A stretch of DNA of 64,000 nucleotides from Hevea brasiliensis. Its lineage: Eukaryota > Streptophyta > Magnoliopsida > Malpighiales > Euphorbiaceae. The translations under genes were made by a program, and so were the position numbers. Positions 4,004 through 60,550 of this stretch are shown piece by piece. Each line of letters opens with the position of its first letter. Position 1 is the first letter of the stretch. A model generated the notes under the pieces. It saw only the letters and a program-made list of their open reading frames with translations. It had not been told where the DNA came from and made no database searches. The stretch is taken from NCBI RefSeq assembly GCF_030052815.1, contig NC_079496.1, positions 78,791,652-78,855,651 on the forward strand, written 5' to 3'.

Positions 4004-4593
4004 AGATATAGAGACTAGAGGAGCCGCAGATTGAGCTACTGAGGATTGAGGAGCTACCTACTTTGAAGTTATTGGGTACATTTTATACCCTGATTGCAAA
4101 AATTTATTTTGATATATGTAATGTATGTAAATGTATGGACATGTAAAATTGGTTATGAGCAGTTGTATAAAGCTTGTAATAAATTTTGGTTTGGATTTCT
4201 CTTAATGTAAATTTTTGTAATGATGTATATAAATTGTTTTATCTTTAATGAAATATGAATGAAAGTATTTTGTTTTAATTTGAATAGAATTGATTAATAG
4301 TATTTTGATGATTGTTGAATTTTGGAAATTGATAAGTGATGTTGAAATTGATTGGGATGGTTGTGAAATTGAAGAAGTTATTGAGGCAAATTATTGGAAG
4401 TGCTTTTTACAGGTATTTGAAGAACTGTTTTCTCAAAATATAGATGGTACCCTGCCAAAATTTCTATAAAATTTGCAGAAAAATAAATAGAACAAAAATT
4501 TTGCTTGTTTTAAAACTTTGAATAAATGATTTTAATATCTATTTAGAAATACTCACCACTTATAAAAGTAAGAAAATTGTTTTAAAATCCCTT

Positions 4594-4651
4594 GTAGGAT
4601 ACTTAATGAGTTATCAATAGGTGAAGTTTTGTAGTTCATTAGGTATTCTAT
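4594..4651 (+). other. U5 long hairpin, B truncated copy
   Basis: Arms 4594-4615 and 4630-4651 form 21 of 22 pairs, six of them G.U, with one C.U mismatch at the loop side. The hairpin ends 39 nt before the LTR terminus. Confidence 0.6.
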
Positions 4652-4690
4652 GGGATCATGTTATGCCTTACAGAGGGGTAAGGTGTGACA

Positions 4691-4744: not shown

Positions 4745-7700
4745 CTAGAGCCATTCATTATAATATCTTAGACCCATATTCTCAAAATGTTAGTCTAACT
4801 GAGCTTGTGATATAGTCTTCGTGAATGGATCAGCTAGATTTTCAGCTGATGCTATTTTCTGCATGGCTACATCACTTTGCTCAACTATCTCTCTGATAAT
4901 GTGGTAGCGCCTTTCTATGTGTTTGGATTTCTGGCGAGACCAGGGTTCTTTATCCAAACAGCCTCTTTTGCAGCATCTGATGCGGTAATGTACTCGGCCT
5001 TTATAGTAGAATCAGCATTTGTACTCTGTTTGGAACTCTTCCAACTGACTGCACCTCTATTACAAATGAACACAAACCCAGAATTAGACTTTCTATCATG
5101 ATATCTGATTGGAAATCAAAATCAGTATAACCATCCAATTGCAAATCACCACCTCCATAAATTAAAAATAAATCCTTAGTTCTTCTCAAGTACTTAAGGA
5201 TGTTCTTGACAACTATCCAGTGTTCCAAACCTAGATTGGATTGAAACCTGCTAGTCAAACTAACAACATGTGCGATATCGGGCCTAGTACACATCATTGC
5301 ATACATCAAACTTCAAATAGCCGAAGCATATGGAATCCTGGCCATTTTATCTCTTTCTTCAGGTGTCTTTAGAGACATCGTTTTAGAAAGGTAGATACCA
5401 TGTCTCACTGGTAACAATCCTCTCTTGGAATCAAGCATGTTAAACCTCTTTAACACCTTTTTCAAGTATAGGTTCTGGGATAAACCAATTATTCTTTTCG
5501 CTCTATCTCTATAAATAAGAATTCCAAGAATATAGGTTGCCTCTCCTAAGTCTTTCATGGAGAATGTATTTGACAACCATACCTTTACAACTGTTAACAT
5601 ACATATGTCATTACTTATCAACAGAATATCATCCACATATAAGACAAGGAAAGTGATAGCACTATCACTAACCTTCTTATATGCACATGGTTCATCCACA
5701 TTTTTTATAAAACCAAATGACTTAATGGCTTCATCAAAACGGATGTTCCAACTCCTCGAAGCTTGTTTCAACCCATAAATGGATCGCTTTAGCTTGCATA
5801 CCTTGGAACCATCTTGGGATTCAAAACCCCTAGGTTGTTCCATGAAAATGTTTTCTTCAATGTATCCATTGAGAAAAGCAGTTTTGACATCCATCTGCCA
5901 AATCTCATAATAATAGTATGCAGCTATTACTAATAGAATTCTAATTGATTTAAGCATGGCAATAGGCGAGAAAGTCTCCTCATAGTCGATTCCTTACCTT
6001 TGGCAAAACCCTTTCGCTACTAGCCTTGCTTTATAGGTCTCTACCTTTTCATCAGAACCAATTTTCTTTTTGAAAATCCATTTATTCCCTATAGGTATAA
6101 TACCTTCAGGTGGGTCAACAAGATCCCAAACTTGATTCTTATACATGGCATCAATTTCGGATATCATAGCTTCAATCCATTTTGAAGAGTCTATATCTGA
6201 TATAGCTTCTTCATAGGTAAGTGGATCATCTCCATAATCTACTTCTTCATGAGTAAACAACTCTTATTCATCTTTATGAAGAAAACCATATCTCACTAGT
6301 GGGTGAGATATACTGGTTGATCTGTGAGGAATTACTGTAGATGTTTCATCAGTAGGTGTAAGTTGACTAGATAGATCTATATCCATTTGATCTGTTGGTT
6401 AGTCAGAATTCTCTAATTCTAACTCTATTTGCCTTCCTTTGCCTCCTTATTGAATAAATTGTTGTTCAAGAAATGTGGCATCTCTACTTACCACAACCTT
6501 TTGTGAAGTAGGCAAATAAAAATAACATCCAAAACTCTCTTTTGGATATCCAACAAATCGACCTTTTTCTGATCTGGTTTCCAATTTATCAGTGTTCAAC
6601 TTTTTGATATAAGCTGGACAACCCCAAATCTTAACATGCTTAAGACTTAGTTTTCTTCCATGCCATATCTCATAAGGTGTGAAAGAAACTGATTTTGATG
6701 GAATCCTATTCAGAATATGCAAAGCTGATTCTAATGCAAATCCCTAAAAGGAGATTGGCATATCAGTATAGCTCATCATACTATGTACCATATCTAATAG
6801 GGTACGATTTATCCTTTCAGATACACCATTCAGTTGTGGCGTTCCTAGAGGAGTTAGCTGGGAAATAATGCCATGCTCTTTCAAGTATTCATCAAATTCA
6901 ATACTCAAGTATTCACCTCCACGGTCTGATCAAAGAGCTTTAATACTTTTTCCTGTTTGATTTTCTACTTCAGATTTAAATTCTTTGAACTTTTCAAAGG
7001 ATTCATGTTTGTATTTCATCAAATACAAATACCTAAACCTTGATTTATCATCAGTAAAGGTAATAAAGTAATGAAAACCACCTCTAGCCATTTCTTTAAA
7101 TGAACCACATACATCACTATGTATTAGCTCCAAAATATTTTCAGCTCTTAGTCCTTGTCCAATAAAGGGTGATCTAGTCATTTTGCCCTGAAGGCAGGAT
7201 TCACAAGTTGGAGTAGGTTTAGAACTCAATGAGGATAAAATCTACATTTTCTCCAGTTTTGCAATCCTATCTTCTGCAACATGACCTAATCTTAAGTGCC
7301 AAATATATTTTGAACTTGAGTTGATTTTCATCATGGCATTGCATTCTTTTAGATTGCTTGCATTCATTTTGTGTTTATCATTATTATCCAAATAATAAAG
7401 ACCATCATGCATATAACCCGAGCCAACATAGTTATTTCCAAAATAAATATTGCCAACATCATCTGTGAACTAAAATTCATAACCATTTCTAGTCAAACTA
7501 GATATAGAAATGATGTTCTTAAAAGCATCAGGCATGTACAAAATATTATTCAAACACAAAACATGTTCACATATGTAAAAAGATTTAGATCCTATGGCTA
7601 AAGCTTCAATAGTTGAGCCATCGCCAATCCGGAGTCTAACATCTCGAGCATGCAAGCTGCTACTGTTTGCTAGTTCCTGCATATCATAAGAAATGTGAGA

Positions 7701-12768: not shown

Positions 12769-13358
12769 GAAAAGAGCATAGAGCAGTTGAGTAAGCTTTC
12801 TTGAAGACACATTGGGACTAGCTCTGGGTATATCACAGATATACACTTGTACATAGATTTTTGATGTATGTATGTAATTATATGTATGTAAATTATTTAA
12901 GCAGTTGTACAAAAACTTTTGTAACATTATTTTAGTGTGTAATTGAAATGAAAATTATTTGTAATATTAATTTTAGTACTTTAATGAATGTACTATTTAA
13001 TTTCTTCTTGAGTTTAAATTTACGTATGGTTTCCTTTATGATGAGTTTGGGTTGAAAATGAATTGAGATAGTTGATACAAATGATTTATGCATTTGTTAG
13101 ATTGAATTGTGTTAAGAAATGATTTGAAATAGAGTTATGGTTGAGCAAAAATATTGGAAGTGTGTTTCTTTGCAGGTTTTGAACAACTATTTTCTCAAAA
13201 ATATAGCCGGCACTCTATCGAAATTTTTGTAAAAATTGCAAAAATTTTAATGACCCGAAAATTTGATTTATGACTTAGTGTTAAATAAAGGTTTTTAATA
13301 TTTATGAAAAATTTATCCACCACTTTCAAAATGAACGAAAATTGTTTTAAAATCCCTT

Positions 13359-13416
13359 ATAGTATATTTAATGAGTTATCAGTAGGTGAAGTACGGTAAT
13401 TCATTAGGTGTACTAC
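13359..13416 (+). other. U5 long hairpin, group C copy
   Basis: Arms 13359-13380 and 13395-13416 give 21 of 22 RNA pairs, five of them G.U. The outermost pair is A.C. Confidence 0.65.
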
Positions 13417-13460
13417 GGGATCATGTTATGCCTTACGGAGGGGTAGGGTGTGACACTCAT

Positions 13461-17655: not shown

Positions 17656-18157
17656 AGGTAGACAGACAGATAGGGCAGCAGACTAGGCTGCTAGTACCGC
17701 CAGCGAGAGATTTTTGGGTATAGTGAGTATACCGCATTTTGTATTTTGTAATGTAATGTATATTCACTGTATGTATATTTTGTTTTTGGTTTTGAGCAGT
17801 TGCAAATTCAAATTGTACCTTGAAGTTGTAAATTAATTATGAGATATTTGACTTGTAAAAACTGTATTATATTTCCTTATCTCAGACTTTGAAAAATTTC
17901 TATGGAATTGAGTTGATAAATTGTTGTGTTGAGAAATGTATTGGAGTTGAGATTTGGAAAATTATTGAAGTGTCTTTTTACAGGTTTCTGAAGAACTGTT
18001 TTATCCAAAATACAGATGACACTCTGCCAAAATTTTTACAGAAATTCCAAATAAATCAAATGAGTTAATTGTTTCACTTCAGTTCACAAAAGTTTTTAAT
18101 ACCTGTAAATAGTGCTCACCACTGTAAAAGAAGTAAGAAAAGTTTTTAAAATCCCTT

Positions 18158-18214
18158 GTAGTGTACTTAATGGGTTATCAGTAGACGAAGTTGGAAATTC
18201 ATTAGGTATACTAC
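18158..18214 (+). other. U5 long hairpin, LTR A1
   Basis: Arms 18158-18179 and 18193-18214 give 21 of 22 pairs, with one A.A mismatch near the loop. The loop is AGTAGACGAAGTT. It ends 39 nt before the LTR terminus. Confidence 0.65.
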
Positions 18215-18258
18215 GGGATCATGTTATGCCTTACAGAGGGGTAGGGTGTGACACATAT

Positions 18259-19099: not shown

Positions 19100-19143
19100 T
19101 CTGATGTCACACCTTACCCCTCTGTAAGGTATAACATGATCCC

Positions 19144-19201
19144 GTAGAATACTTAATGAACTACCGAACTTCACCTACCGATAACTCATTAAGTACCCTA
19201 C
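19144..19201 (-). other. U5 long hairpin, B 3' LTR
   Basis: Arms 19144-19166 and 19179-19201 form 23 of 23 pairs in the minus-strand RNA, five of them G.U. The loop is GTAGGTGAAGTT-like, close to that of group A although the stem bases differ. Confidence 0.7.
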
Positions 19202-19635
19202 AAGGGATTTTAAAACAATTTTCTTACATTTTGGAAGTGGCGAGCATTTTAGTAGGAATTAAAAACCATTTATTCAAAGTTCAAATACTAGACTCCCAAC
19301 CTCCAATAAATCTCAATCAACTCAATTCAAATCACTTCAAAGTAATTCCACAATACAAATCAAAATTCATCATCTCAAAATATTTAATACTTCATTCACA
19401 AGGCATAAAACATGAAATTCACATGTACAAATATTAAATTTACAGAAGGAAATCCAAAAATAATATTATTATTACAATTTATTTACAACTGCTCAACTTA
19501 CATTGATACATACAACATTATTATATTTACATCAAAATTAACTACAAGGGTATAAAATAATACCCGTACAAAAAGACCAGAGTAGTCCTCAATTTAATAG
19601 CAGCTCACTCTGCTGCTTTCTCCTTGCTCTTATCT

Positions 19636-19677
19636 GCGACAGCAAAATAAGCTATCGCTGAGTATAAAAATACTCAG
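19636..19677 (-). other. Double hairpin, B 3' LTR
   Basis: CTGAGTAT (19658-19665) pairs with ATACTCAG (19670-19677), an 8-bp stem of different sequence from group A. GCGACAGC (19636-19643) pairs with GCTATCGC (19651-19658). Confidence 0.65.
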
Positions 19678-22382
19678 TGGTGCACAATACAAATTTAAGA
19701 TGCAATACATAAATCATTCATTGGTGAAACACAATTTCAATATTTCTCAAATTATCAAAGCTCATAATAACACAATTTAGTCAAACAATTTCATAAACAC
19801 AGTGTTGCCAAAGTCTTAAGCTATGACACAAAATTTCCGATCAATGCCGTGTTGTACACCACGACAAAGCAATCTACAACCCCATTAATCGAAATCAATG
19901 AGGGAGGTGGCTAGCTAGCTAATGAGTACTCATCCGATCTCAACCTCAACTGGCAAGCCAGAAAGGGAGGAAAATAAACGATCTCAACCCCATAAATGGA
20001 AGAGGAATAATGTGATACTGTCATGCTGAGTGTGAACATAAAATCAATTCAAAACAATTTATTCAAATAATTTACTGAAAATCTGATAAATTTTCAAAGT
20101 CATATTCACAATCATAAGTGGCAACACAATTCATAATTAACTCAAAAAAATCAAATTTTCAAGAATCATAAATTTAAATAACAATTACTGTGCACAGACC
20201 TGACGTGAGTCGCCTCTAGGCCTTGACTCAGTCTTTCAGAGCTTCCAAGTCTTGTTCAGCTGAAACATACAATTTCACAGTGTTTCAGTACCATAACTTA
20301 GCATAAATCCAAAAATAAATTTCACTTCATTTTTACCTAGCTTTAATGTGCTAATTTCGACGTTCTCGAAGTTTTTGTGTTTCGGGTTACTATTCACTAC
20401 ACTGTTCAAGTCAAATTGTTGACTTTTTAAGGCTTAATAGGTATGGGAACTCCAACTTCACCCACATACCACATTTTGGTCATTAAATTTGTTGGTTTTG
20501 GTCATTTTCTCAAAGCTTAAATCCTTTTGGCCAAATTGTCAAATTTTCAGTTTTGGTGCTCCAAGTTGCACTGTTCCATTGGTAATTTTACTGTTAAAAT
20601 TTGACAAAACGTCCTTCATAGAAAATTTTCCTTATTGTCTTAAGTTTATTCTCATTTTTGAATCACCCAAATTGGAGTTTTTTAGCTCAAGTTATGGCCA
20701 TTTGAACTAGGGCTGCCGGATTGGACACAACCCAGATTTTCTGGGCAAATTTTGGTGCTGGCAGATTTGAGTTACCAACTTGGGGTGGCCAAATGGGTTG
20801 GTTTCTGGCAGAATTTGGACTTGTGTTCTTCATGAAAGTTTTAGGTCTATATCTCATCTAATCTCTTGTAAAATTTCAGGTCATTTTGACCTGCCTAGCT
20901 CGAGTTATGACCAAATGAACAAACACTGTTTATTTGGTTAGTTTGTACAGTGGCAGACTGCTCTTATTCAACTTTGGTCAATTTGTTCACTAGGTTTTGG
21001 TCACTTTTTGGGCATGGTTCCTAAATGAAAATTGTGTCATTTTATGTCTATTTTCATCCCCAATTGGTACCATATCAATTGGGCTTGTAAAATTTCAGTT
21101 TTGGTCCTTCAAAGTTGACTTGGTCATGCTACCAGCAGCATGACCATACAACCTCCGAATTTAACTTAATTTCCAACCATTCCCACACAACTCATTTGGT
21201 CATAATTGACCATTTTTCACTTCACAATAAGTCAAAGATATCATTTATTCATTTCTCACATTTTTTTGGTTCACAAACCCTAATATTCAAAACCCTAACT
21301 CATCCATCTCATGTATTTAATCACAATTAGTGCTCTTAATCCTAACCATTCAACTAAATAAGGTTTTTAAACTCATTCAAATCCATCAAACCATACAAAA
21401 TCCTACTCCCCTTCAACAAGCCGAAATTTCAGTTTGGTCCTCCCCCCATATTTTTATTTCATTTTATTAGTTTCTAAGCTCATTTCAACAACTAATTACG
21501 CATTTAAAATGGAAAATAACAAGTTAACATACTAACCTATCTTTTGCCCTTCTTAAGTTGCAATAACAAGTTCTAGTAAGGTTTTTAGGGGAGTTATGAA
21601 GATTGAGTGAAGGAATTTAAGCTTAAGTGTAAGCTTAAATGAAGAGTTTTCATGGAGGAAATTGGGAGTGAGTGAGGCGGAAAAGAGAGGAAGAAGAAAG
21701 AGCTTTCTAAATTTTTTTTTCTTTTCTTTTATAAATTTTGGGTTATGGAAGACCATAAAAATCTAATTTAATAATTCAATTAATTAATTTTTTTATGGCA
21801 TCATGCATGAGGTCATGCATGATGTCATCACCTTTTTACTTTTTCATTTTCCTCTTTTTTTTAATTTATTTTCCTATTAGTTCTTTAATTTAATTCTCGA
21901 TTCCGATATTTTCTTTTCTCTGATTTTATTTGACAGTTAGGTCAGGAGTCAGCTCTCGAGGTCAATTGACCAAATCGCCCCTCGCCGGTTCATCCCGGTT
22001 TGCAAATAATTCCATATTTCTTTCGACTCCCTGACCTAATTATTTGACTGGCTTAACAGTTCTTTTTCATGATTTTCTCTTTTCCACTGTGTTTATAATG
22101 GTCCTAAGGGCCGCAGCGTCACATTTTATGGTTCGAAATTTGAGTTTAAAACGACTTCGTAGTCGTTCCCGAGGAGGTCACCCATCGCTGTGACTCTCGG
22201 CTCGTTTAACTTCTTATGTTCTGTTTTTCTTATTTATACTTAACTAATTCAATATTACTAATTATTTGTGTTTATGGTTTCTCTAGTTGTCTTAAGTATG
22301 GTTCTAATCCCTTAATTGTTCGGATCGACACCGGTCACCGGAACAGTGAAATATACCAGGCTATACAAATAGGGGTGTTACA

Positions 22383-22950: not shown

Positions 22951-22994
22951 TCTTATGTCACACCCTACCACTCTGTAAGGCATGACATGATCCC

Positions 22995-23051
22995 GTAGTA
23001 TACCTAATGAATTATCAACTCCGTCTATTGATAACCCATTAAATACACTAC
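22995..23051 (-). other. U5 long hairpin, LTR S1
   Basis: Arms 22995-23016 and 23030-23051 form 22 of 22 pairs, five of them G.U. One pair that is U.G in other A copies is U-A here. Confidence 0.68.
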
Positions 23052-23562
23052 AAGGGATTTTAAAAACTTTTCTTACTTCTTTCACAGTGGTGAGAACTAT
23101 TTACAGGTGTTAAAAACTTTTGTGAACTGAAGTGATAGAACTAACACATTTGACTTATTTGGAATTTCTGTAAAAACTTTGGCAGAGTGCCATCTGTATT
23201 TTGGATAAAACAGTTCTTCAGAAAACCTGTAAAAAGCACTTCAATATTTTTCCAAATCTCAACTCCAACAAAATTCAACACAATATTTTTCTCAACTCAA
23301 TCCACAACAATTTTTCAGTATTTTCAAAGGATGAGATAAAAGAAATATAATACGAATTTTACAAGTCAAATTAACTCATAATTCACTTTACACTTCAATG
23401 TACAATTTTAATTTACAACTGCTCAAAACCAACAACAATATGTACATACAGTGAACATACATTATATTACAAAATACAAAATATTGGTATACTCATTATA
23501 CCCGAAAATCTCTCGCTAGAGGTACTAGTAGCCTAGTCTGCTGCCCTGTCTGTCTGTCTACC

Positions 23563-28650: not shown

Positions 28651-28662
28651 GCTCTGATACCA
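28651..28662 (-). other. Primer binding site of N1
   Basis: The minus strand reads TGGTATCAGAGC, complementary to the 3' end of initiator tRNA-Met, 8 nt inside the LTR end at 28671. It ties gag 28480 to the LTR 28671-32661 as one unit. Confidence 0.9.
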
Positions 28663-28709
28663 CTAAAACATGTCACACCCTACCCCTCTGTAAGGCATAA
28701 CATGATCCC

Positions 28710-28766
28710 GTAGTATACCTAATGAATTACCAACTTCGTCTACTGATAACCTATTAAATACACTAC
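28710..28766 (-). other. U5 long hairpin, N1 LTR
   Basis: Arms 28710-28731 and 28745-28766: 21 of 22 pairs, six G.U and one A.C. Confidence 0.65.
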
Positions 28767-29267
28767 AAGGGATTTTAAAACTTTTCTTACTTCTTTTTAT
28801 AGTGGTGAGCACTATTTATAGGTGTTAAAAACCTTTTTGAACTGAAGTGAAACAGCTAACACATTTGGACTATTAATAATTTCTGTAAAAATTTTGGCAG
28901 AGTGCCATCTGTATTTTAGACAAAACAGTTCTTCAAAAACCTGTAAAAAGCACTTCAATATTTTTCTCAATCTCAACTCCAACATAATTCAACACAATAT
29001 GTTTTTCAACTCAAATCCACAATAATTTTTTAAAGACTGAGATAAAAGAAATACAGTACAAATTTTTCAAGCCAAAATACTCATAATTTACTTTACAACT
29101 TCAATGTACAATTTTAATTTACAACTGCTCAAAACCAAGAACAATATATACATACAGTGAACATACATTACAGTACAAAATACAAAATGTGGTATACTCA
29201 ATATACCCGATGATCTCTCAATGTAGTACTAGCAGCTTAGTCTGCTGCCCTGTTAGTCTGTCTACCT

Positions 29268-36824: not shown

Positions 36825-36836
36825 GCTCTGATACCA
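36825..36836 (-). other. Primer binding site of the B element
   Basis: Minus-strand TGGTATCAGAGC, an initiator tRNA-Met type site 8 nt from the LTR end at 36845. Confidence 0.92.
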
Positions 36837-36844
36837 CTAAAACA

Positions 36845-39800
36845 TGTCACACCTTACCCCTCTGTAAGGTATAACATGATCCCGTAGAATACTTAATGAA
36901 CTACCGAACTTCACCTACCGATAACTCATTAAGTACCCTACAAGGGATTTTAAAACAATTTTCTTACATTTTGGAAGTAGTGAGCATTTTGGTAGGAATT
37001 AAAAACCATTTATTCAAAGTTTAAATACTAGACTCCCAACCTCCAATAAATCTCAATCAACTCAATTCAAATCACTTCAAAGTAATTCCACAATACAAAT
37101 CAAAATTCATCATCTCAAAATATTTAATACTTCATTCACAAGGCATAAAACATGAAATTCACATGTACAAATATTAAATTTACAGAAGGAAATCCAAAAA
37201 TAATATTATTATTACAATTTATTTACAACTGCTCAACTTACATTGATACATACAATATTATTATATTTACATCAAAATTAACTACAAGGGTATAAAATAA
37301 TACCCGTACAAAAAGACCAGAGTAGTCCTCAATTTAATAGCAGCTCACTCTGCTGCTTTCTCCTTGCTCTTATCTGCGACAGCAAAATAAGCTATCGCTG
37401 AGTATAAAAATACTCAGTGGTGCACAATATAAATTTAAGATGCAATACATAAATCATTCATTGGTGAAACACAATTTCAATATTTCTCAAATTATCAAAG
37501 CTCATAATAACACAATTTAGTCAAACAATTTCATAAACACAGTGTTGCCAAAGTCATACACAACTTAAGCTACGACACAAAATTTCCGATCAATGCCGTG
37601 TTGTACACCATGACAAAGTAATCTAAAACCCCATTAATCGAAATCAATGAGGGAGGTGGCTAGCTAGCTAATGAGTACTCATCCGATCTCAACCTCAACT
37701 GGCAAGCCAGAGAGGGAGGAAAATAAACGATCTCAACCCCATAAATGGAAGAGGAATAATGTGATACTGTCATGCTGAGTGTGAACATAAAATCAATTCA
37801 AGACAATTTATTCAAATAATTTACTGAAAATCTGGTAAATTTTCAAAGTCATATTCACAATCATAAGTGGCAACACAATTCATAATTAACTCAAAAAAAT
37901 CAAATTTTCAAGAATCATAAATTTAAATAACAATTACTGTGCACAGACCTGACGTGAGTCGCCTCTAGGCCTTGACTCAGTCTTTCAGAGCTTCCAAGTC
38001 TTGTTCAGCTGAAATATACAATTTCACAGTGTTTCAGTACCATAACTTAGCATAAATCCAAAAATAAATTTCACTTCATTTTTACCTAGCTTTAATGTGC
38101 TAATTTCAACGTTCTCGAAGTTTTTGTGTTTCGGGTTACTATTCACTACACTGCTCAAGTCAAATTGTTGACTTTTTAAGGCTTAATAGGTATGGGAACT
38201 CCAACTTCACCCACATACCACATTTTGGTCATTAAATTTGTTGGTTTTGGTCATTTTCTCAAAGCTTAAATCCTTTTGGCCAAATTGTCAAATTTTCAGT
38301 TTTGGTGCTCCAAGTTGCACTGTTCCATTGGTAATTTTACTCTTGGAATTTGACAAAACTTCCTTCATAGAAAATGTTCCTTATTGTCTTAAGTTTATTC
38401 TCATTTTTGAATCACCCGAATTGGAGTTTTGTAGCTCAAGTTATGGCCATTTGAACTAGGGCTGCCGGATTGGACACAACCCAGATTTTCTGGGCAAATT
38501 TTGGTGCTAGCAGATTTGAGTCACCAACTTGGGGTGGCCAAATGGCTTGGTTGCTGGCAGAATTTGGACTTGTGTTCTTCATGAAAGTTTTAGGTCTATA
38601 TCTCTTCTAATCTCTGGTAAAAGTTCAGGTCATTTTGACCTGCCTAGCTCGAGTTATGACCAAATGAACAAACACTGTTCATTTGGTCAGTTTGTACAGT
38701 GGCAGACTGCTCTTATTCAACTTTGGTCAATTTGTTCACTAGGTTTTGGTCACTTTTTGGGCATGGTTCCTAAATGAAAATTGTGTCATTTTATGTCTAT
38801 TTTCATCCCCAATTGGTACCATATCAATTGGGCTTGTAAATTTTCAGTTTTGGTCCTTCAAAGTTGACTTGGTCATGCTGCCAGCAACATGACCATACAA
38901 CCTCCGAATTTAACTTAATTTCCAACCATTCCCACATAACTCATTTGGTCATAATTGACCATTTTTCCCTTCACAATAAGTCAAAGGTATCATTTATTCA
39001 TTTCTCACTTTTTTTTGGTTCACAAACCCTAATATTCAAAACCCTAACTCATCCATCTCATGTATTTAATCACAATTAGTGCTCTTAATCCTAACCATTC
39101 AACTAAATAAGGTTTTTAAACTCATTCAAATCCATCAAACCATACAAAATCATACTCCCCTTCAACAAGCCAAAATTTCAGTTTGGTCCTCCCCCCATAT
39201 TTTTATTTCATTTTATTAGTTTCTAAGCTCATTTCAACAACTAATTATGCATTTAAAATGGAAAATAACAAGTTAACATACTAACCTATCTTTTTCCCTT
39301 CTTAAGTTGCAATAACAAGTTCTAGTAAGGTTTTTAGGGGAGTTATGAAGATTGAGTGAAGGAATTTAAGCTTAAGTGTAAGCTTAAATGAAGAGTTTTC
39401 ATGGAGGAAATTGGGAGTGAGTGAGGCAGCAAAGAGAGGAAGAAGAAAGAGCTTTCTAAATTTTTTTTTTTCTTTTCTTTTATAAATTTTGGCTTATGGA
39501 AGACCATAAAAATCTAATTTAATAATTCAATTAATTAATTTTTTTATGGCATCATGCATGAGGTCATGCATGATGTCATCACCTTTTTACTTTTTCATTT
39601 TTCTCTTTTTTTTAATTTATTTTCCTATTAGTTCTTTAATTTAATTCTCGATTCCGATATTTTCTTTTCTCTGATTTTATTTGACAGTTAGGTCAGGAGT
39701 CAGCTCTCGGGGTCAATTGACCAAATTGCCCCTCGCCGGTTCATCCCGGTTTGTAAATAATTCCATATTTCTTCCGGCTCCCTGACCTAATTATTTGACT

Positions 39801-40133
39801 GGCTTAACAGTTCTTTTTCATGATTTTCTCTTTTCCACTGTGTTTATAATGGTTCTAAGGACCGCAGCGTCACATTTTACTGTTCGAAATTTGAGTTTAA
39901 AATGACTTCGCAGTCCTTCCCGAGGAGGTCACCCATCGCTGTGACTCTCGGCTCGTTTAACTTCTTATGTTTTGTTTTTCTTATTTATACTTAACTAATT
40001 CAACATTACTAATTATTTGTGTTTATGGTTTCTCTAGTTGTCTTAAGTATGGTTCTAATCCCTTAATTGTCCGGACAGACACCGGTCACCGGAACAGTGA
40101 AATATACCAGGCTATACAAATAGGGGTGTTACA
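36845..40133 (-). mobile_element. 5' LTR of the B element (3.29 kb)
   Basis: Nearly identical to 19105-22382, including the short open frames. Plus-strand ends TGTCACACCTTACCCC and GGGGTGTTACA, followed by the target duplication TCTGA. As the 5' LTR it would hold the element promoter; I could not place a convincing TATA box and start. It includes a perfect CATCATGCATGA-type palindromic stretch near 39550-39575 and the double hairpin at 37376-37417. Confidence 0.93.
36884..36941 (-). other. U5 long hairpin, B 5' LTR
   Basis: Arms 36884-36906 and 36919-36941, 23 of 23 pairs, identical to the 3' LTR copy. Confidence 0.7.
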
Positions 40134-46667: not shown

Positions 46668-47191
46668 AATGATAGCTTTTATTGTTGTCGCAGTAGGCAG
46701 AGCAGTAAGGTGCATCAGCCGCTAGTACCTCCAGCGAGAGATTTTCGGGTATAATGAGTATACCAACATTTTGCATTTTGTACTGTAATGTATGACCACT
46801 GTATGTACATATTGTTTTTGGTTTGAGCAGTTGTAAATTCAAATTGTACCCTGAAGTTGTAAAATAATTATGAGATATTTTGACTTGTAAAAAATTGTAT
46901 TGTATTTCTTTTATCTCAGTCTTTGAAAAATCACTGTGGATTTGAGTTGAGAAAAATGTTGTATTGAGAATATGTTGGAGTTGAGATTTGGAAATCTATT
47001 GAAGTGCTTTTTACAGGTTTTCTGAAGAACTGTTTTATCCAAAATACAGATGGCACTCTGCCAAAATTTTTACAGAAATTCCAAATAATTCAAATGTGTT
47101 AGTTCTATCACTTCAGTTCAAAAAGGTTTTTAACACCTGTAAATAGTGCTCACCACTGTAAAAGAAGTAAGAAAAGTTTTTAAAATCCCTT

Positions 47192-47248
47192 GTAGTGTAT
47201 TTAATGGGTTATCAGTAGACGGAGTTGGTAATTCATTAGGTATACTAC
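47192..47248 (+). other. U5 long hairpin, LTR A3
   Basis: Arms 47192-47213 and 47227-47248, 22 of 22 pairs, six of them G.U. Confidence 0.7.
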
Positions 47249-47292
47249 GGGATCATGTTATGCCTTACAGAGGGGTAGGGTGTGACAGTTCA

Positions 47293-47848: not shown

Positions 47849-47895
47849 TCTGAAGGAGCGAAAGCATGTTGATTAGCTCATTAGAGCATTGAAAA
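47849..47895 (-). mobile_element. Copia-2 LTR 3' stub
   Basis: GAAGGAGCGAAAGCATG and TTAGAGCATTGAA match the 3' edge of the copia-1 LTR (40147-40190). It joins integrase sequence directly at about 47896, so most of the LTR plus RT and RNase H have been deleted. Confidence 0.6.
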
Positions 47896-49732
47896 CCTAA
47901 ACCCTACCACAACCTTTTGTGATGTAGGCAAATAAAAATAATATCCAAAACTTTCTTTTGGATAACTAACAAATCTACCATTTTCTGATCTAGTTTCCAA
48001 TTTATCAATGTTCAGCTTTTTGATATAAGCTGGAAAACCCCAAATTCTAACATGCTTAAGACTTGGTTTTCTTCCATAACACATCTCATAATGTGTGGAA
48101 GAAACTGATTTTGATGGAATCCTATTCAGAATATGCAAAGATGATTCTAATGCAAATCCCCAAAAGGAGATTGGCATATTAGTATAGCTCATTATACTAC
48201 GTACCATATCTAATAAGATACGATTTCTCCTTTCAGATACACCATTCAACTGTGGCATTCCTGGAGGAGTCAGCTGGGAAACAATGCCATGCTCTTTCAA
48301 GTATTCATCAAATTCAGTACTTAAGTATTCACTTCCATGATCTGATTGAAGATTTTTAATACTTTTTCCTGTTTGATTTTCTACTTTAGATTTAAATTCT
48401 TTGAACTTTTCAAAGGATTCATGTTTGTATTTCATCAAATACAAATACCCAAACCTTGATTTATCATCAGTAAAGGTAATAAAGTAATGAAAATCGCCTC
48501 TAACTATTTCCTTAAATGGACCACATACATCACTATGTATTAGCTACAAAATATTTTCAGCTCTTAGTCCTTGTCCAAAAAAGGGTGATCTAGTTATTTT
48601 GCCTTGAAGGCAAGATTCACAAGTTGGAGTAGGTTTAGAACCTAATGAGGATAAAATCCTCATTTTCTCTAGTTTTGCAATCCTATCTTCTGCAATATGA
48701 CCTAATCTTAAGTGCCAAATATATTTTGAACTTGGGTTGATTTTCATCATGGCATTAAATTCTTTTAGATTGCTTGCATTCAATTTGTGTTTATCATTAT
48801 TATCTAAATAATGAAGACCATCATGCATATAACCTGAGCCAACATATTTATTTCCAAAATAAATATTACAAACATCATCTGTAAACTGAAATTCATAACC
48901 ATTTCTAGTCAAACTAGATATAGAAATGATGTTCTTAAAAGTATCAAGTACATACAAAATATTATTCAAACACAAAACATGTCCACACCTATAAAAAGAT
49001 TTAGATCCTATGGTTAAAGCTTCAACAGTTGAGCCATCGCCAATCCGGAGTCTAACATCTCGAGCATGCAAGCTGCTACTGTTTGCTAGTTCTTGTATAT
49101 CATAAGAAATGTGAGAATTGGCACGAATATCTAAAACCCAAGCTATAGATGAACTATTAGCATCATCAGCATCTAAATAACAAGATATAGACATACCTTC
49201 TGAAGGTGTATCCATCTTGTCCTTTAGAGAAGTAAGATACTCTAGGCAGTTTCTTTTCCAGTGCCTATCCTTCTGGCAGTGGAAATACTTTCCTTTGCCT
49301 CCATCAGCTTTCGTCTTCCCTTTTTGTTTGGCTATCTTCTTAGAAGGTCCTGGAACTTGAGGTTTCTTTTTCTTATTGCCCTTCTTCTTGTTGGACTTTT
49401 TAGTAGAAGAAGATGCAATCAAAGCTACCTCTTTTGCTTTATTGCCTAGCATATTCTTTTTTGCTACAACAAGCATGTTAAGTAAACTAGCCAAGGTGTA
49501 TTCCTGCTTAGTCATATGGAAATTTGTCACAAAATTTCCAAATGACTCAGGTAGGGACTGAAGGATCAAATCTGTTTGCAGTTGGAAATCCATGTTAAAG
49601 TCAAGATGTTCTAGCTGCTCAATAAGCCGAATCATCTTATGGACATGATTTCCTACATTCTGTCCTTTAGACATCCCCATGCAGAATAGTTGCCTAGATA
49701 TCTCATACCTAGCATTCCTGCTATGTTCACCA
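47896..49732 (-). pseudogene. Copia-2 gag-PR-INT relic, truncated at both ends
   Basis: Close copy of copia-1 running from mid gag (GEHSRNARYEISRQLF) to integrase (YLPTSQKVVV). Frame is kept throughout, with one in-frame stop (NIL*LIHSD, about 48541) before it breaks into LTR sequence at about 47896. The zinc knuckle has lost its first cysteine (YFHCQKDRHWKRNC). The protease site reads LDIRANSH in place of the usual D-S/T-G. Integrase keeps HHCC (HLRLGH...CESC), FTDDKSR and QSDHGSEY. It retains the 36 nt (YLDADDANSSSI) that copia-1 lacks. Gag is cut on the right by the B LTR at 49733. Confidence 0.9.
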
Positions 49733-52528: not shown

Positions 52529-53063
52529 GCGATAGCTTATTTTACTGTCACAAATAGGAGCAAGGAAAAAGCAGCAGAGTGAACTGCTGAACTAGAAAAG
52601 CCTTCACTGATTTTGTACGGGTATTATTTTATACCCAATGTAATTTAGTTTGATGTAAATAAATATTGTTCATATGTATTAATGTAAAGTTGAGTAGTTA
52701 TATTTATAAATTGTAATAATATTATTTTTGGATTTTATATCTGTGCATTAAACTTGTTAATGTAAATTAACTTTATTGAATGCAATGTTGATGGAATTAT
52801 TTTGAAGTGGTTTGATTTGAGAAATTTAAGTTGATTTGGGTTGGGAGTTGTGGAGAAATTTATTGGAAGTATTTTTCTTAGATATTTGAAGAACTGTTTT
52901 TTCAAAATACAGATGGCACTCTGCCGAAATTTTTATAAAATTTGCGAAAAAATAAAATGAGACAAAAATTTTAAGTAGTTTTAAAACTTCGAATAAATGA
53001 TTTTAATTTCTACCAAAATGCTTACCACTTCCAAAATGTAAGAAAATAGTTTTAAAATCCCTT

Positions 53064-53121
53064 GTAGGATACTTAATGAGTTATCTGTAGGTGAAGTTCG
53101 ATAGTTCATTAGGTATTCTAC
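53064..53121 (+). other. U5 long hairpin, B LTR at 49733
   Basis: Arms 53064-53085 and 53100-53121, 22 of 22 pairs, four of them G.U. Confidence 0.7.
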
Positions 53122-53168
53122 GGGATCATGTCATGCCTTACAGAGGGGTGAAGTGTGACATGTTTTAG

Positions 53169-53180
53169 TGGTATCAGAGC
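53169..53180 (+). other. Primer binding site
   Basis: TGGTATCAGAGC, initiator tRNA-Met type, 8 nt after the LTR end at 53160. Confidence 0.9.
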
Positions 53181-53349
53181 ATGGTTTTGTAATAAATTTT
53201 GACTATGTGCATGAATATTTCTTTGAAAAGTACAACTGCTCAAGTGTCTTTAATTGATACATATGACATATTTACATCATGAATATGCACTAACGGAGGT
53301 CAACCTCCTTGTGTTTGATCTCAGAAAGTATAAATTTTTGAGAAACGGA

Positions 53350-53566
53350 ATGGAAGAGGGAGATCATTCCGTCGAACAATCTGTTGAGGCTGAGGTTTAA
53401 GGGGAAGCCCCAGCACTCCAAAACGTGAGTGGGTCAGCCATTCTAGCTCCTACTCTAGTGCCGCAATTTCCTACTCAGTTTGCACAGTAGATGGATGCGT
53501 TTTTCTAACAAATGGCAGGAAATGTGCCACCTCAAGCTCAAATGCAAGCACCCATAGCACAATTAT
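53350..53566 (+). pseudogene. Gypsy gag N-terminal fragment
   Basis: Starts MEEGDHSVEQSVEAEV and keeps MAGNVPPQAQM, clearly homologous to the gag starts at 36655 and 28480. Three in-frame stops occur within 70 codons. Similarity ends near 53566, where the sequence switches to LTR 3' sequence; the rest of gag and all of pol are gone. Confidence 0.85.
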
Positions 53567-54056
53567 TGTAATGTTCAAACTTATTTTTGAGTTTTGTAAT
53601 GAATGTAAATTAATTTTTCTTTAGTGGAATATGAATGAAGTCATTTAATATTATTTTTGAAGACAATTGAATTGAGAATTGTTTTGAATTATGGAGTTGG
53701 GAGAAATGATATTGATTTGTGTTGTGGAAGTGGTTGATTTTAATGAAATGAATTATTGGAAGTGTTTTTTTTACAGGTATTTGAAGAACTTTTTTTCCCA
53801 AATATAGACGGAACTCTACCGAAAATTTTTCAAAATTTGCGTAAAAGTAAAAATGTACAAAAATTTTAACTAGTCTTTAAACTTCAAGTAAAAGTTTTTA
53901 ATTCCTACCAAAAGTGCTTGCCACCTTTGAAAAGTAAGAAAATTGTTTTAAAATCCCTTGTAGTATATTTAATGGGTTACCGATAGGCGAAGTATGGTAA
54001 TTCATTAGATGTGTTACGGGATTATGTTACATCTTACTGAGGGATAGGGTGTGACA
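53567..54056 (+). mobile_element. 3' end of a divergent A/B-type LTR
   Basis: Runs from LTR sequence about 490 bp before the terminus to the end GGGATAGGGTGTGACA. It differs at many positions from the LTR at 49733, so it is not that LTR's twin. It is followed by D LTR sequence, so it probably inserted in the D LTR and later fused with the element on its left by deletion. Confidence 0.7.
53960..54017 (+). other. U5 long hairpin, divergent copy
   Basis: Arms 53960-53981 and 53996-54017, 22 of 22 pairs, six of them G.U. Several pairs differ from both A and B while pairing is kept, which makes this the most informative copy. Confidence 0.7.
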
Positions 54057-54909
54057 TGATAGCCCGAGGTACTTAGTACCCAGTGCTAGTTTACCCATTT
54101 ATCTAGTCCGGTCAACTGGTATAGGTTACTTGGGCAATTAAAATAAGTCTTAAAAATTTACAATTAAATAATGAACATAAAAAAAAACTCTAAATTAAGG
54201 ATATTACAAATAGTTACCAAAAATTCAGTCTGTGTGATTTATTAGCATAATTTCTTTGTATTTAATTATTTAGTTTATTTTTATATTACATTGGCACCAC
54301 TAAGCTTCATGCTTAGCGCGTCACTTTTTGCCACGCATAGATACTGAAGATCAGGAGAGAGAGCCCAGTATGCCTTAGACTGGGAGATAGAGTTTTGATC
54401 TGCATTGGGTCTCGAGTGTCACCTCATCCAACAATGCACATTTTGGGTAGACTCCACTAGTCTTGTATTTTATTTTTGGACTTTGTAATTAAATTTTGAA
54501 AATGTAATGTAAATTATATATCTGTACATTAATTTTGTACATGATGTAAATTAATAATATTTGAAAATTTTTCTTCTTGAATTGTTCATGAATGGATGTG
54601 ATTAAATGATTTTATGTGTTTGGAATGAGAATGGAGATGAAATACTTGATTCAAAATTATGAGATGATGATTGAAATTATGAAAAATTTATATGTTTGAA
54701 ATTATTATTGAGATTTTAAACAGGTGTGATTTGTCAAAATTGTGAATAATTTAGGAAAAACTCCATCAGTTTCTCCGATTAATAAATTGACCCAAAATCA
54801 ATAAACCAAAATGTGGATACTAGGAAAGATAATAAGATAAGTTAAAGCGTTCCAGCACCGAGTGTGACATGCCTTGCTCAGCTACACTGTAAACGGGTAA
54901 GGAGTGTCA
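54057..54909 (+). mobile_element. Group D LTR fragment, inverted relative to the D element
   Basis: GTACTTAGTACCCAGTGCTAG onward matches the complement of 58700-58750 in the D LTR. It ends GGTAAGGAGTGTCA at 54909. It lies in plus orientation, opposite to the gag-pol at 55466-57856, so it is not that element's 3' LTR. The hairpin CTAAGC/GCTTAG is at 54300-54316. Confidence 0.75.
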
Positions 54910-55051
54910 CACCCTTGATTAAAATACATCCTTTATAGCCAACTTGAGCCAATGTTTTTACCTATATATTTTCCTTTTTACCCATATTATTCACCTAGCC
55001 CTTAGCCCATACACTTAACTTACCCTTATGAGAGAGGTTATTTATTAAAGT

Positions 55052-57967: not shown

Positions 57968-57979
57968 GCTCTAATACCA
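57968..57979 (-). other. Primer binding site of D element
   Basis: The minus strand reads TGGTATTAGAGC, one base different from the sites of the other elements, 7 nt from the LTR end at 57987. Confidence 0.82.
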
Positions 57980-57986
57980 CTAAATA

Positions 57987-60550
57987 TGACACTCCTTACC
58001 CGTCTATAGTGTAGCCGAGTAAGATATGCCACACAGTGTGCCGGAGCACCAATTCATATTTCTATTACAATTTACCTTTTTTAATTCATTTATTCACAAT
58101 TTTTTATTAATCTCAATTTTTGCAAATTTTATAGAAAATTCGGCAGAGTGCTAGCTGTAAATTGAAAAAACAGTTCTTCTGAATTTGTTAAAAACACTTC
58201 CAATATAATCATAATTTCAATCTCAGTCAACCACGAACATCTTTCCACAATTTCTCAAATGACATCAATATTTCAAAAAATTCAATTCATTCATATCATA
58301 CTCAACTCCATAAGAAATACTCAAATTATTACTGAACATGGTTCATAAATAATTACATAACAAAAAGTTTACAAATACAAAAGACCAAAAGTAGCCTAAT
58401 GTCCTACCAATGCACTGCAAATGTGAGGTGACTCTGGATTCTGTGTGCGGATCTGAACGCTCACCCAGTATGAGGTCTGCTGGACTCCCCAGCTATGTCT
58501 CCAACACCTGCATGTGGCAAAAGCGATGCGCTAAGCAATTCTGCTTAGTGGTGACAATATAAAATAAAATAACTAAAATAAAATGGATATGCAAAATGTA
58601 TGTTTACATTTTATGTAGACTTAATTTGGCATTTATTACTGTATTATTCAATTAAAATTTTGTAAGATTTGTTTTCATTGCTTGAGTAACCTTTACTAGT
58701 TGACTAGACTAGATAAACGGGTAAACTGGCACTGGGTACTAAGTACTTCGGACCATCACACCATTGGTCACATTGTGTCTCCCGGTGTGCAACAGAACAG
58801 CTAATAAGCTATATTAATTATCAGGGATAAAACCCAGGTCACCTTTTGAACATGTTATGCTCAAAATTTGAGTTAGGTTTCTTCACAAAAGTTGTAGGTA
58901 TATGTCTCAGCTATTTACTGGTAAAATTTCAGGTCAATTTGACCTTTCTACACTGAGTTATGATCAAATGAATTCATTTGGTCATTTTGCCCAGGCAGAA
59001 TGCAGGTCACCCGGATTAGGACAATCTTTAGGTCAATTTGGTTTGGTTTTCTAGGAATGGTTTCTTCACCAAAGTTATGACATTATGTGTCTAGTTTCAT
59101 GTCCAATTGGCCTTGCACAAATTGAATCTCTACATAACTTGAGCAACAAAACTCCAAATGGAGTGATTCAAAAAAGGAAATATAACTAGACACAATAAGA
59201 AACAACTTTCATGTTGACAACTTTGCTAAATTCCCACTGCAAAAATTACTAATGGAATAGTAAATACAAGGCTTGAAATCTAAAAATTTTGACCAACTAA
59301 AATTAAGCTTAGAAATGGTATTGGCAACCAATACCAATAATTTTAGAATGCAAAATGTGGTATGTTGGGAGTATTAAAACCAATGTACCTATTGTCTATG
59401 CAAAAGTCAACATTTTTGTTGTAACCAAACCTACTGGACTCATGCCTAGTCCTACAGGTCGCCAAGAGCAGCAACACTAACTTCAATTCCCACTACACAA
59501 ACCACTTCATTTCTCATTTACACATAACCAAATGGTCACTAATTGACCATTAAAACTTACGTTCACCATTACATGATCAAAATCTCAATTTTGGTTCCAA
59601 ACCCTATCTCTACCTTTTCAATTTTTCAAACACATACAATCAATGGATCAATTGATACTCCCAATGATGCATATACAAGTTTAAAGGATTAATTGACACT
59701 AACCTTTGTTGGAGAGTTTCCCTAACTTACAAAACTTCTTGATTTTTCTTTCTTTTTGCTCTAGTTGGAAGGAGGAGTTTTAGTGAAAGGAGCAAGTGAT
59801 TTTAGGGGGTGTTTATAAAGAAAATTTAGAAAGAAGGAAAGTCATCAATGGAGATAAGAGAGAGAGAGGAATTCGGCTGAAGAAGGAAGAGAGAAGATGG
59901 CAGATGTTTCTTTTGATTTTTACCCCATTTAACCCTTTTTAAATTGATTTCATAATGCTTGTTATAATTTGATTGGTGGAGCCCTTTTAATGACATCATT
60001 CTTATGCAATAAATCCATTTATTTCTTCTTCTTCTTCTTCTTTATTCTTCTTTCCATTCATTTTTAATAAATTTTTCATCAATATTTATTCATATTTTAT
60101 GTCATATAATTCACTTACATAAATGGACAAGTTGATAAAAAATCATCTCTGAAGACAAAATGACCAAAATGCCCTCCGTTTGGCTTAACGAGCTAAAACT
60201 GATTGAAAAATTTTTCTAAGCCTTTTCTTGGAATTCTAATGTCATGGAATCCTCAATGACTCTTCTTTGGAGTCCCAAAAATTATTTTATGAATTTTTTC
60301 CTGGGTTTAGGTTTGCTAACGGCCTTTACCGTCACTTCCCCTTCGGGTTACTCATCACTGGGGTTTTGGCTCATTTAACCTTAGTGCATTTCATTCCTAA
60401 AAATTTTTCTTGAATTTTATGAGCATTGTTTGGTTTATTTATAACTCCTCACTCTAGTCTAATTATAATTTCAAAAATTCTAGCTGCCCATACCGACATT
60501 GGTCACCGGAACAGTAGACTGTATGGACTAGCTCAAGTGAGGATGTTACA
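57987..60550 (-). mobile_element. Group D 5' LTR (2.56 kb)
   Basis: Plus-strand ends TGACACTCCTTACCCG and GGATGTTACA, giving a sense LTR TGTAACATCC...GGAGTGTCA. It is joined to the D primer site and gag. It inserted into an F LTR on the right (60551). Contains the hairpin CTAAGCA/TGCTTAG (58531-58548). It lacks the long U5 hairpin of groups A-C. A CTT-repeat lies near 60026-60050. Confidence 0.92.
58531..58548 (-). other. Hairpin, group D LTR
   Basis: CTAAGCA pairs with TGCTTAG around ATTC. It is next to GTGGTGAC, the counterpart of the GTGCACCAC context, but the stem is entirely different from A and B. Confidence 0.6.

What the first reader, a model, noticed from the sequence alone, without database searches (positions are those of the whole stretch)
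18158..18214. Long covarying hairpin in the U5 region of group A, B and C LTRs
Ten LTR 3' ends (arms at 4594/4630, 13359/13395, 18158/18193, 19144/19179, 22995/23030, 28710/28745, 36884/36919, 47192/47227, 53064/53100, 53960/53996) carry 22-23 nt inverted arms with a short loop sharing GTAG and GAAGTT, about 40 nt before the LTR end. Arm sequences differ between copies, but almost every change keeps pairing. Counting by eye, about 53 G.U pairs occur against only two A.C, one A.A and one C.U, in the gag-sense strand. The copies are related, so the counts are not independent. Methyl-C decay of a DNA palindrome should give A.C as often as G.U; the bias suggests selection on sense RNA. Its place beside the primer site recalls the U5 stem-loops that control reverse-transcription start in retroviruses. 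I do not know a description of it for these plant elements.
Basis: partly seen in the sequence, partly recalled or inferred. Interest (0 to 1): 0.82.

Follow-up and report, generated by a model that had tools for sequence, protein, structure and literature searches.

The report
Paired RNA hairpins beside primer site
Many virus-like jumping genes in this plant genome end their terminal repeats with two back-to-back RNA hairpins, right beside the place where copying of the RNA into DNA begins, and the way they vary suggests that the RNA shape itself has been preserved.

Summary
The stem is longer than described: 28 pairs. Twenty 10-kb stretches taken blind from the same genome held 20 more copies, one with HP1 cut by a deletion. 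A fourth LTR family has a taller terminal hairpin, with two-sided changes, but no HP1.

Sense-strand selection is supported, but not by raw counts. Between families A, B and C, 12 of 41 base pairs differ: 12 of 12 still pair in sense RNA, 1 of 12 in antisense; majority G.U occurs at 14 pairs, majority A.C at none. Against this, a tree-based test finds 0 of 41 significantly covarying pairs, and single-copy events are near 1:1 (28.6 to 21.3), so most of the raw G.U excess is inherited.

Best reading: a U5 leader RNA element of Ty3/Gypsy elements, akin to the U5-IR stem-loop of retroviruses and Tf1, acting at reverse-transcription start and/or packaging. Function is inferred.

The parts
18151..18219 (+). 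HP1 (28-pair hairpin), family A LTR; the copy named in the finding
18222..18253 (+). HP2 (13-pair terminal hairpin), ends on last LTR base
4587..4656 (+). HP1
4659..4690 (+). HP2
13352..13421 (+). HP1
13424..13455 (+). HP2
19139..19208 (-). HP1, 3' LTR of element B
19105..19136 (-). HP2, 3' LTR of element B
22990..23058 (-). HP1, family A
22956..22987 (-). HP2, family A
28705..28773 (-). HP1, family A 5' LTR
28671..28702 (-). HP2, family A 5' LTR
28651..28662 (-). primer-binding site TGGTATCAGAGC, 8 nt after the LTR end
36879..36948 (-). HP1, 5' LTR of element B
36845..36876 (-). HP2, 5' LTR of element B
36825..36836 (-). primer-binding site of element B
47185..47253 (+). HP1, family A
47256..47287 (+). 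HP2, family A
53057..53126 (+). HP1, family B type
53129..53160 (+). HP2, family B type
53169..53180 (+). primer-binding site
53953..54022 (+). HP1, family C
54025..54056 (+). HP2, family C
57985..58033 (-). terminal hairpin of family D (counterpart of HP2, taller, no HP1)
57968..57979 (-). primer-binding site of this family D copy (one mismatch)
54863..54911 (+). terminal hairpin of a second, isolated family D LTR end
36845..40133 (-). 5' LTR of element B; the window that holds its last 104 nt is the most stable of 399 scanned
19105..22382 (-). 3' LTR of element B (97.7% identical to the 5' LTR; target duplication TCAGA)

Best explanation
The last 104 nt of these LTRs encode a two-module RNA element of the genomic RNA leader. 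SHOWN by computation: HP1 and HP2 form in the sense strand alone and in leader context, are present in copies on several chromosomes, and stayed able to pair in sense while families A, B and C diverged; a terminal hairpin ending at the LTR end is shared with family D. INFERRED: the element lies in U5, so it occurs once in the genomic RNA, directly upstream of the primer-binding site. HP2 would insulate and present the primer site and be the first structure that reverse transcriptase meets (usually 8 nt after the primer site), like the U5-IR stem-loop of retroviruses and of Tf1; HP1, with its conserved purine-rich loop, would be a docking site for a protein (Gag nucleocapsid or reverse transcriptase) that couples packaging to the start of copying.
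For: Position: HP2 ends on the last LTR base; of 25 LTR-end/primer-site junctions matched in held DNA (near-identical copies included), 16 have an 8-nt spacer, the rest 5 to 7. Strand: sense energy is lower than antisense in 10 of 10 ABC ends and 15 of 15 family-D ends. Blind copies: 20 in 200 kb, none used in the model; their cells are 116 G.U vs 12 A.C (HP1) and 67 vs 3 (HP2). Family level: 12 of 12 differing pairs kept in sense, 1 of 12 in antisense; 14 majority-G.U pairs vs 0 A.C (sign tests p 0.001 and 0.0001; still 0.006 and 0.001 one-sided if sense-favouring changes were 62% of all). Single changes in stems keep the pair more often than the mutation spectrum predicts: 51.6 of 84.2 vs 35.4 expected (terminal), 21.0 of 26.6 vs 13.3 (internal). 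Stem columns change 1.1-1.9 times on the tree, upstream columns 4.1. Family D: 6 pairs with changes on both sides, 0 of 500 shuffles as high. In context HP2 pairs with mean probability 0.89-1.00 and 75-85% of HP1 bases pair within HP1 in 14 of 14 leaders. Precedent: Tf1 needs a U5-IR-like structure (Lin and Levin 1998, title seen only in reference lists).
Against: 0 of 41 pairs covary significantly in the tree-based test; the best has E 0.089, and 32 column pairs outside the structure score higher. Event-level G.U over A.C is not significant. The antisense rule also exceeds its expectation (z 2.4 against 3.1 for sense, Watson-Crick starts, terminal branches), so the spectrum from unpaired columns underestimates transitions in stems and inflates the z values. 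At unpaired columns the sense-favouring changes (C>T, A>G) equal the others on terminal branches (46.6 vs 47.7) but lead on internal ones (29.0 vs 17.5, p 0.10), so some strand bias of substitution on deep branches is not excluded. In element B other LTR windows show strand differences of nearly the same size. Transcription start and poly(A) site are unknown, so U5 placement is inferred. No RNA probing, transcript data or functional test.
Confidence: 0.5

Rival explanations
1. The pair is mainly a packaging or dimerisation signal: Gag binds the looped purines of HP1, and reverse-transcription start is not affected directly.
For: The HP1 apical loop fits TAGRYGRAGT in 50 of 57 copies; in mouse mammary tumour virus a purine loop and the primer site are the Gag-binding packaging signals (PMC8096270, abstract). 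The gag piece of the family A element has a zinc knuckle.
Against: No Gag-RNA binding data. For three loop sequences the only 6-nt complements in 400 nt of three leaders are three copies of one hexamer at different places in two leaders, so no kissing partner was found. Position at the primer site is equally expected for a reverse-transcription element.
Confidence: 0.2
2. The hairpins act in 3'-end formation (or its suppression in the 5' LTR), as R-region hairpins do in some retroviruses.
For: They lie in the LTR, so are encoded at both ends; AATAAA occurs 169-210 nt before the LTR end in 6 of 10 copies.
Against: 4 of 10 copies have no AATAAA in the last 600 nt; HP2 ends on the last LTR base, which is hard to fit inside R.
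Confidence: 0.1
3. DNA-level palindrome: an integrase, transcription-factor or cruciform site, not an RNA element.
For: The HP2 3' arm contains the LTR terminus that integrase must recognise; the LTR start of element B carries a near-matching inverted end.
Against: A DNA palindrome has no preferred strand, yet 11 of 12 family-level pair differences keep only sense pairing and 0 only antisense; 14 majority G.U vs 0 A.C. HP1 lies 34 nt inside the end.
Confidence: 0.07
4. No selection on structure: an ancestral hairpin inherited by related copies and now decaying, with some strand bias of substitution.
For: 0 of 41 pairs covary with the tree modelled; single-copy events are near 1:1; the 40 listed best hits to one family A copy are 97-100% identical; unpaired columns lean 29.0 to 17.5 towards sense-favouring changes on internal branches.
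Against: Families A, B and C all keep both hairpins with different wobble states, although the LTRs of element B align with family A only over the last 164-171 nt; stems change two to four times less often than upstream columns; family D keeps a terminal hairpin with two-sided changes; the family-level skew survives a 62% bias.
Confidence: 0.07
5. The hairpin feeds small RNAs (a microRNA-like precursor or silencing trigger).
For: A 28-pair stem is near the length of a small-RNA duplex.
Against: It does not explain position at the primer site, the second hairpin or the conserved loop; no small-RNA data were at hand.
Confidence: 0.05

Closest known systems
Retroviral U5-IR stem-loop (details recalled; named in a passage of PMC3601003)
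   Same: Stem-loop in U5 directly upstream of the primer-binding site, in the sense genomic RNA
   Different: Here two separate hairpins lie back to back; HP2 ends exactly on the last LTR base; no tRNA contact has been shown
U5-IR-like structure of Tf1 (Schizosaccharomyces; Lin and Levin 1998, title only)
   Same: Same superfamily (Ty3/Gypsy); RNA stem-loop at the start of reverse transcription
   Different: Tf1 is self-primed; these elements have a 12-nt site read here as initiator-tRNA-Met complement (recalled)
Ty1 5' pseudoknot (PMC4974528 passages)
   Same: 5' leader RNA structure needed for efficient reverse transcription in an LTR retrotransposon
   Different: Long-range pairing between R and a site after the primer site, not local U5 hairpins
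Ty3 genomic RNA structure in yeast (PMC11381356 passages)
   Same: Same superfamily, initiator-tRNA primer
   Different: No U5 double hairpin in the 12 passages seen; a candidate dimer site and a bipartite primer site are described
R-region stem-loops of gamma- and lentiviruses (PMC3601003 passages)
   Same: LTR-encoded RNA stem-loops linked to residual conservation
   Different: Those are in R; that survey could not build models for plant Metaviridae LTRs

Membership tests
Ty3/Gypsy (Metaviridae) LTR element | gag, aspartyl protease, RVT_1, integrase in the order of Gypsy elements | tested here: met
   PF03732 in family A and D pieces; in element B zinc knuckle with RVP_2, then RVT_1, then Integrase_H2C2 with rve below its cut-off; copies are broken and were searched piece by piece
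Ty3/Gypsy (Metaviridae) LTR element | LTR pair, primer-binding site, polypurine tract, 5-bp target duplication | tested here: met
   Element B:
Chromovirus, Tekay/Del lineage | Chromodomain at the integrase end | not tested
   Open pieces of 45 aa or more in parts of B and D were listed but not searched; the lineage name is recalled
U5-IR-type stem-loop | Stem-loop in U5 immediately upstream of the primer-binding site | tested here: met
   16 of 20 primer-site matches in window plus 200 kb have it, judged by eye from folds; U5 rather than R is inferred
U5-IR-type stem-loop | Structure kept by sequence change across relatives | tested here: inconclusive
   12 of 12 family-level differences sense-paired, but 0 of 41 pairs significant in the tree test; family D has 6 two-sided pairs, tested without a tree
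U5-IR-type stem-loop | Contact with the primer tRNA | not testable with these tools
   Needs probing with bound tRNA
U5-IR-type stem-loop | Needed for reverse-transcription start | not testable with these tools
   Needs a cDNA assay
Known Rfam RNA family | Gathering-score match | tested here: not met
   0 matches on 64 kb

The most novel reading that the evidence does not exclude
A modular U5 RNA switch common to a major plant Gypsy lineage: a terminal hairpin that closes on the last LTR base and gates the primer site, plus an interchangeable second hairpin whose conserved purine loop recruits Gag, so that packaging and the start of reverse transcription are coupled by one 104-nt element carried by a very large number of copies in one genome.
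Probability: 0.28. Interest if true: 0.65.

Novelty: new variant of a known kind. Interest (0 to 1): 0.5.

Why it matters
Cis-acting RNA structures of plant LTR retrotransposons seem little studied (my searches listed almost none), although these elements make up much of many plant genomes; [quoted passage not shown] If real, this element gives a short conserved landmark for LTR ends, a ready target for probing how these elements start reverse transcription and select their RNA, and a clear case where wobble drift, more than double compensation, keeps a structure.

Tried and rejected
Outside relatives: two pattern scans of viral contigs gave L001-L003 and one of genome contigs gave L004; none shows the double hairpin and all look like chance matches in viral-contig or bacterial DNA. 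Raw G.U:A.C counting as proof: rejected, inherited states dominate. Covariation as proof: rejected for ABC. Strand-biased substitution as the cause of G.U: not seen on terminal branches (46.6 vs 47.7), a lean on internal ones (29.0 vs 17.5, p 0.10) that does not account for the family-level skew. Loop kissing or loop-leader pairing: no consistent complement. TATA box close upstream: a match in the last 300 nt in only 3 of 10 copies. Of 79 ABC rows collected, 22 identical ones were dropped before the counts (57 used); 6 of 57 fell outside families A, B and C and were left out of the family-level test. Rows from family searches are best hits of capped lists (40 scored of 1613 and 5323 candidates), of which 29 and 20 were used. 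Hit lists gave places only; no DNA was obtained for them. The family D set is 15 ends picked from one local blast; 1 of 15 (L033) does not form the stem in its minimum-energy fold. Family D was not tested on a tree.

Full report
Observation. The ten LTR ends are real and align without gaps in the stems. On the sense strand HP1 beats 200 of 200 shuffles in all 10 copies; its antisense strand, as expected of any inverted repeat, is also stable (0-6 of 200 shuffles reach it in 9 copies, 24 in one) but less so. Sense HP2 beats all 200 shuffles in 8 of 10 copies (4 and 1 shuffles reach it in the other two); antisense HP2 is reached by 41-130 shuffles in 6 copies and by 1-9 in 4. HP2 ends on the last base of the LTR. 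Folding energy of 160-nt ends is -43.6 to -57.5 in sense and -26.0 to -37.2 in antisense.

Element anatomy. The window lies in an unnamed 1.88-Gb genome; hits on contigs C1 to C18 of tens of megabases each and a window GC of about 33-35% would fit rubber tree, which is my inference, not a result. Element B runs on the minus strand from 40133 to 19105, with LTRs of about 3.3 kb, 97.7% identical, target duplication TCAGA and a polypurine tract. Its primer-binding site TGGTATCAGAGC (read as initiator-tRNA-Met complement, recalled) lies 8 nt after the LTR end. Pieces downstream match gag or zinc knuckle, protease, reverse transcriptase and integrase of Ty3/Gypsy type. The LTRs of element B align with family A LTRs only over the last 164-171 nt; the B-type copies at 4594 and 53064 align with family A over about 300-370 nt, and 53064 also in one 1349-nt hit at 68.7% that runs into internal DNA. 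The scanned window at the LTR end is the most stable of 399 (B 5' LTR), 397 (B 3' LTR) and 46 (a C-type LTR); in A the last 104 nt (-41.8) are below the minimum of 93 scanned windows (-38.4). Strand difference is the largest of the scan in the A, C and B 5' LTRs, but in B other windows come close in either direction. In 14 of 14 leaders with 170 nt before and 180 nt after the LTR end, both hairpins persist; in the 13 with an exact primer site that site is predicted 65-99% paired.

Blind sample. I took 20 stretches of 10 kb at round positions on contigs C1-C5, C7 and C9. A covariance model built only on the window copies found 20 strong matches in them (110-195 bits; the next best 19.7); one of these, L042, has lost 14 nt of the HP1 3' arm. 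In these 20, HP1 has 116 G.U to 12 A.C and HP2 67 to 3. Over 57 distinct copies from window, blind sample and family searches, the figures are 298 to 22 and 189 to 9. One per 10 kb in mid-chromosome DNA would mean very many copies genome-wide; that is extrapolation from a repeat-rich sample.

Cells repeat inherited states. On a tree of 57 rows, Watson-Crick to G.U versus to A.C events are 28.6 to 21.3 on terminal and 6.2 to 3.4 on internal branches, close to what decaying copies should show. An R-scape-like test (G statistic, product correction, 100 null alignments that keep tree and column rates) gave 0 of 41 pairs at E < 0.05; best E 0.089. The shuffle control of the counting tool on 30 rows is mixed: 24 cells with two-sided changes vs 10.4 expected, 0 of 500; but pairs with two-sided changes 4 vs 2.6, 69 of 500, and further pair types 32 vs 31.7; that control does not model relatedness.

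Tests in favour of sense-RNA selection. Taking the majority state in families A (20 rows), B (10) and C (21), 12 of 41 pairs differ between families; all 12 pair in sense in all three families, 1 of 12 in antisense. Majority G.U occurs in at least one family at 14 of 41 pairs, majority A.C at none; one majority is thin (10 of 19). Single changes in stems keep pairing in 51.6 of 84.2 terminal and 21.0 of 26.6 internal events, against 35.4 and 13.3 expected from the spectrum of unpaired columns. This excess is partly a spectrum effect, since the antisense rule is also raised (z 2.4 vs 3.1). Stem columns change 1.1-1.9 times on the tree, HP1 loop columns 3.3, HP2 loop 2.0, upstream columns 4.1. 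At unpaired columns, C>T plus A>G equals G>A plus T>C on terminal branches (46.6 vs 47.7) but leads on internal branches (29.0 vs 17.5, p 0.10); with a 62% bias the family-level skews would still have chances of 0.006 and 0.001.

A fourth family. A family D LTR end at 57985 (minus) and 14 further ends in held DNA have one taller terminal hairpin that again closes at the LTR end, and only a small stem upstream instead of HP1. Over 22 pairs and 15 copies 90.0% of cells pair, 6 pairs have two-sided changes (0 of 500 shuffles as high), and sliding the partner by 1-3 columns drops pairing to 28-54%. Cells: 60 G.U, 10 A.C, 23 other mismatches. One pair near the apex is mostly G.A (12 of 15). The minimum-energy fold holds the stem in 14 of 15 copies. 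Of 20 primer-site matches (up to 1 mismatch, with at least 130 nt before them) in window plus blind DNA, 16 have a terminal hairpin by eye; L039:4080, L042:8322, L042:528 and L048:5653 do not.

Mechanism. HP2 is the part shared by all four families and touches the LTR end; 25 junctions have a 5-8 nt spacer to the primer site. This is where retroviruses and Tf1 have the U5-IR stem-loop. I therefore favour a role at reverse-transcription start, with HP1 as an added module; the conserved loop TAGRYGRAGT (50 of 57) suggests a bound protein, and packaging is the main rival. U5 placement, tRNA contact, Gag contact and any effect on cDNA are inferred.

Literature. Ten searches were answered; I saw listings, in three cases only the top part (15 of 237, 15 of 126, 10 of 30). 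None of the titles or abstract starts listed names a U5 hairpin of plant Gypsy elements. The library holds open-licence papers only, so this is weak evidence of absence. Seen further: passages of PMC3601003, PMC11381356, PMC11181671, PMC7175516 and PMC4974528, and the abstract and section list of PMC8096270. Lin and Levin 1998 is not held.

Noticed in passing
window, about 200-290 nt before several LTR ends (for example 17975-18040): A conserved stretch (TTTTTACAGGT, splice-acceptor-like, then GAAGAACTGTTTT and a CACTCTGCC-like motif) in copies 28710, 18158, 53960, 13359 and 4594, with variation, in part also in family D, not seen in element B; possibly the R region or a leader splice site.
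   Followed up: no
window 19105-40133: Nested insertion: a family A element (about 29514 to 22956, minus) seems to sit inside element B, which has target duplication TCAGA.
   Followed up: partly
window 5316-5993 and 47884-48543 (minus): Copia-type reverse transcriptase and integrase pieces (RVT_2; rve with a retroviral SH3-like domain), so Copia elements are interleaved with the Gypsy ones.
   Followed up: no
L039:4080 (+): A primer site preceded by what looks like a family D terminal hairpin with its upper part deleted.
   Followed up: no
L042:9339-9504 (+): A family A copy that lost 14 nt of the HP1 3' arm but kept HP2 intact.
   Followed up: no
window 53129-54056: Two LTR ends of different families in the same orientation lie only about 900 bp apart (53160 and 54056), the first followed by a primer site.
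   Followed up: no
genome G000 near C15:44017974 and 44024951, C9:57222507 and 57229224, C4:105947614 and 105954253: Pairs of hits 6.6-7.0 kb apart in the same orientation, likely the two LTRs of single elements; the 40 listed best family A hits are 97-100% identical to the query, so this family seems young.
   Followed up: no
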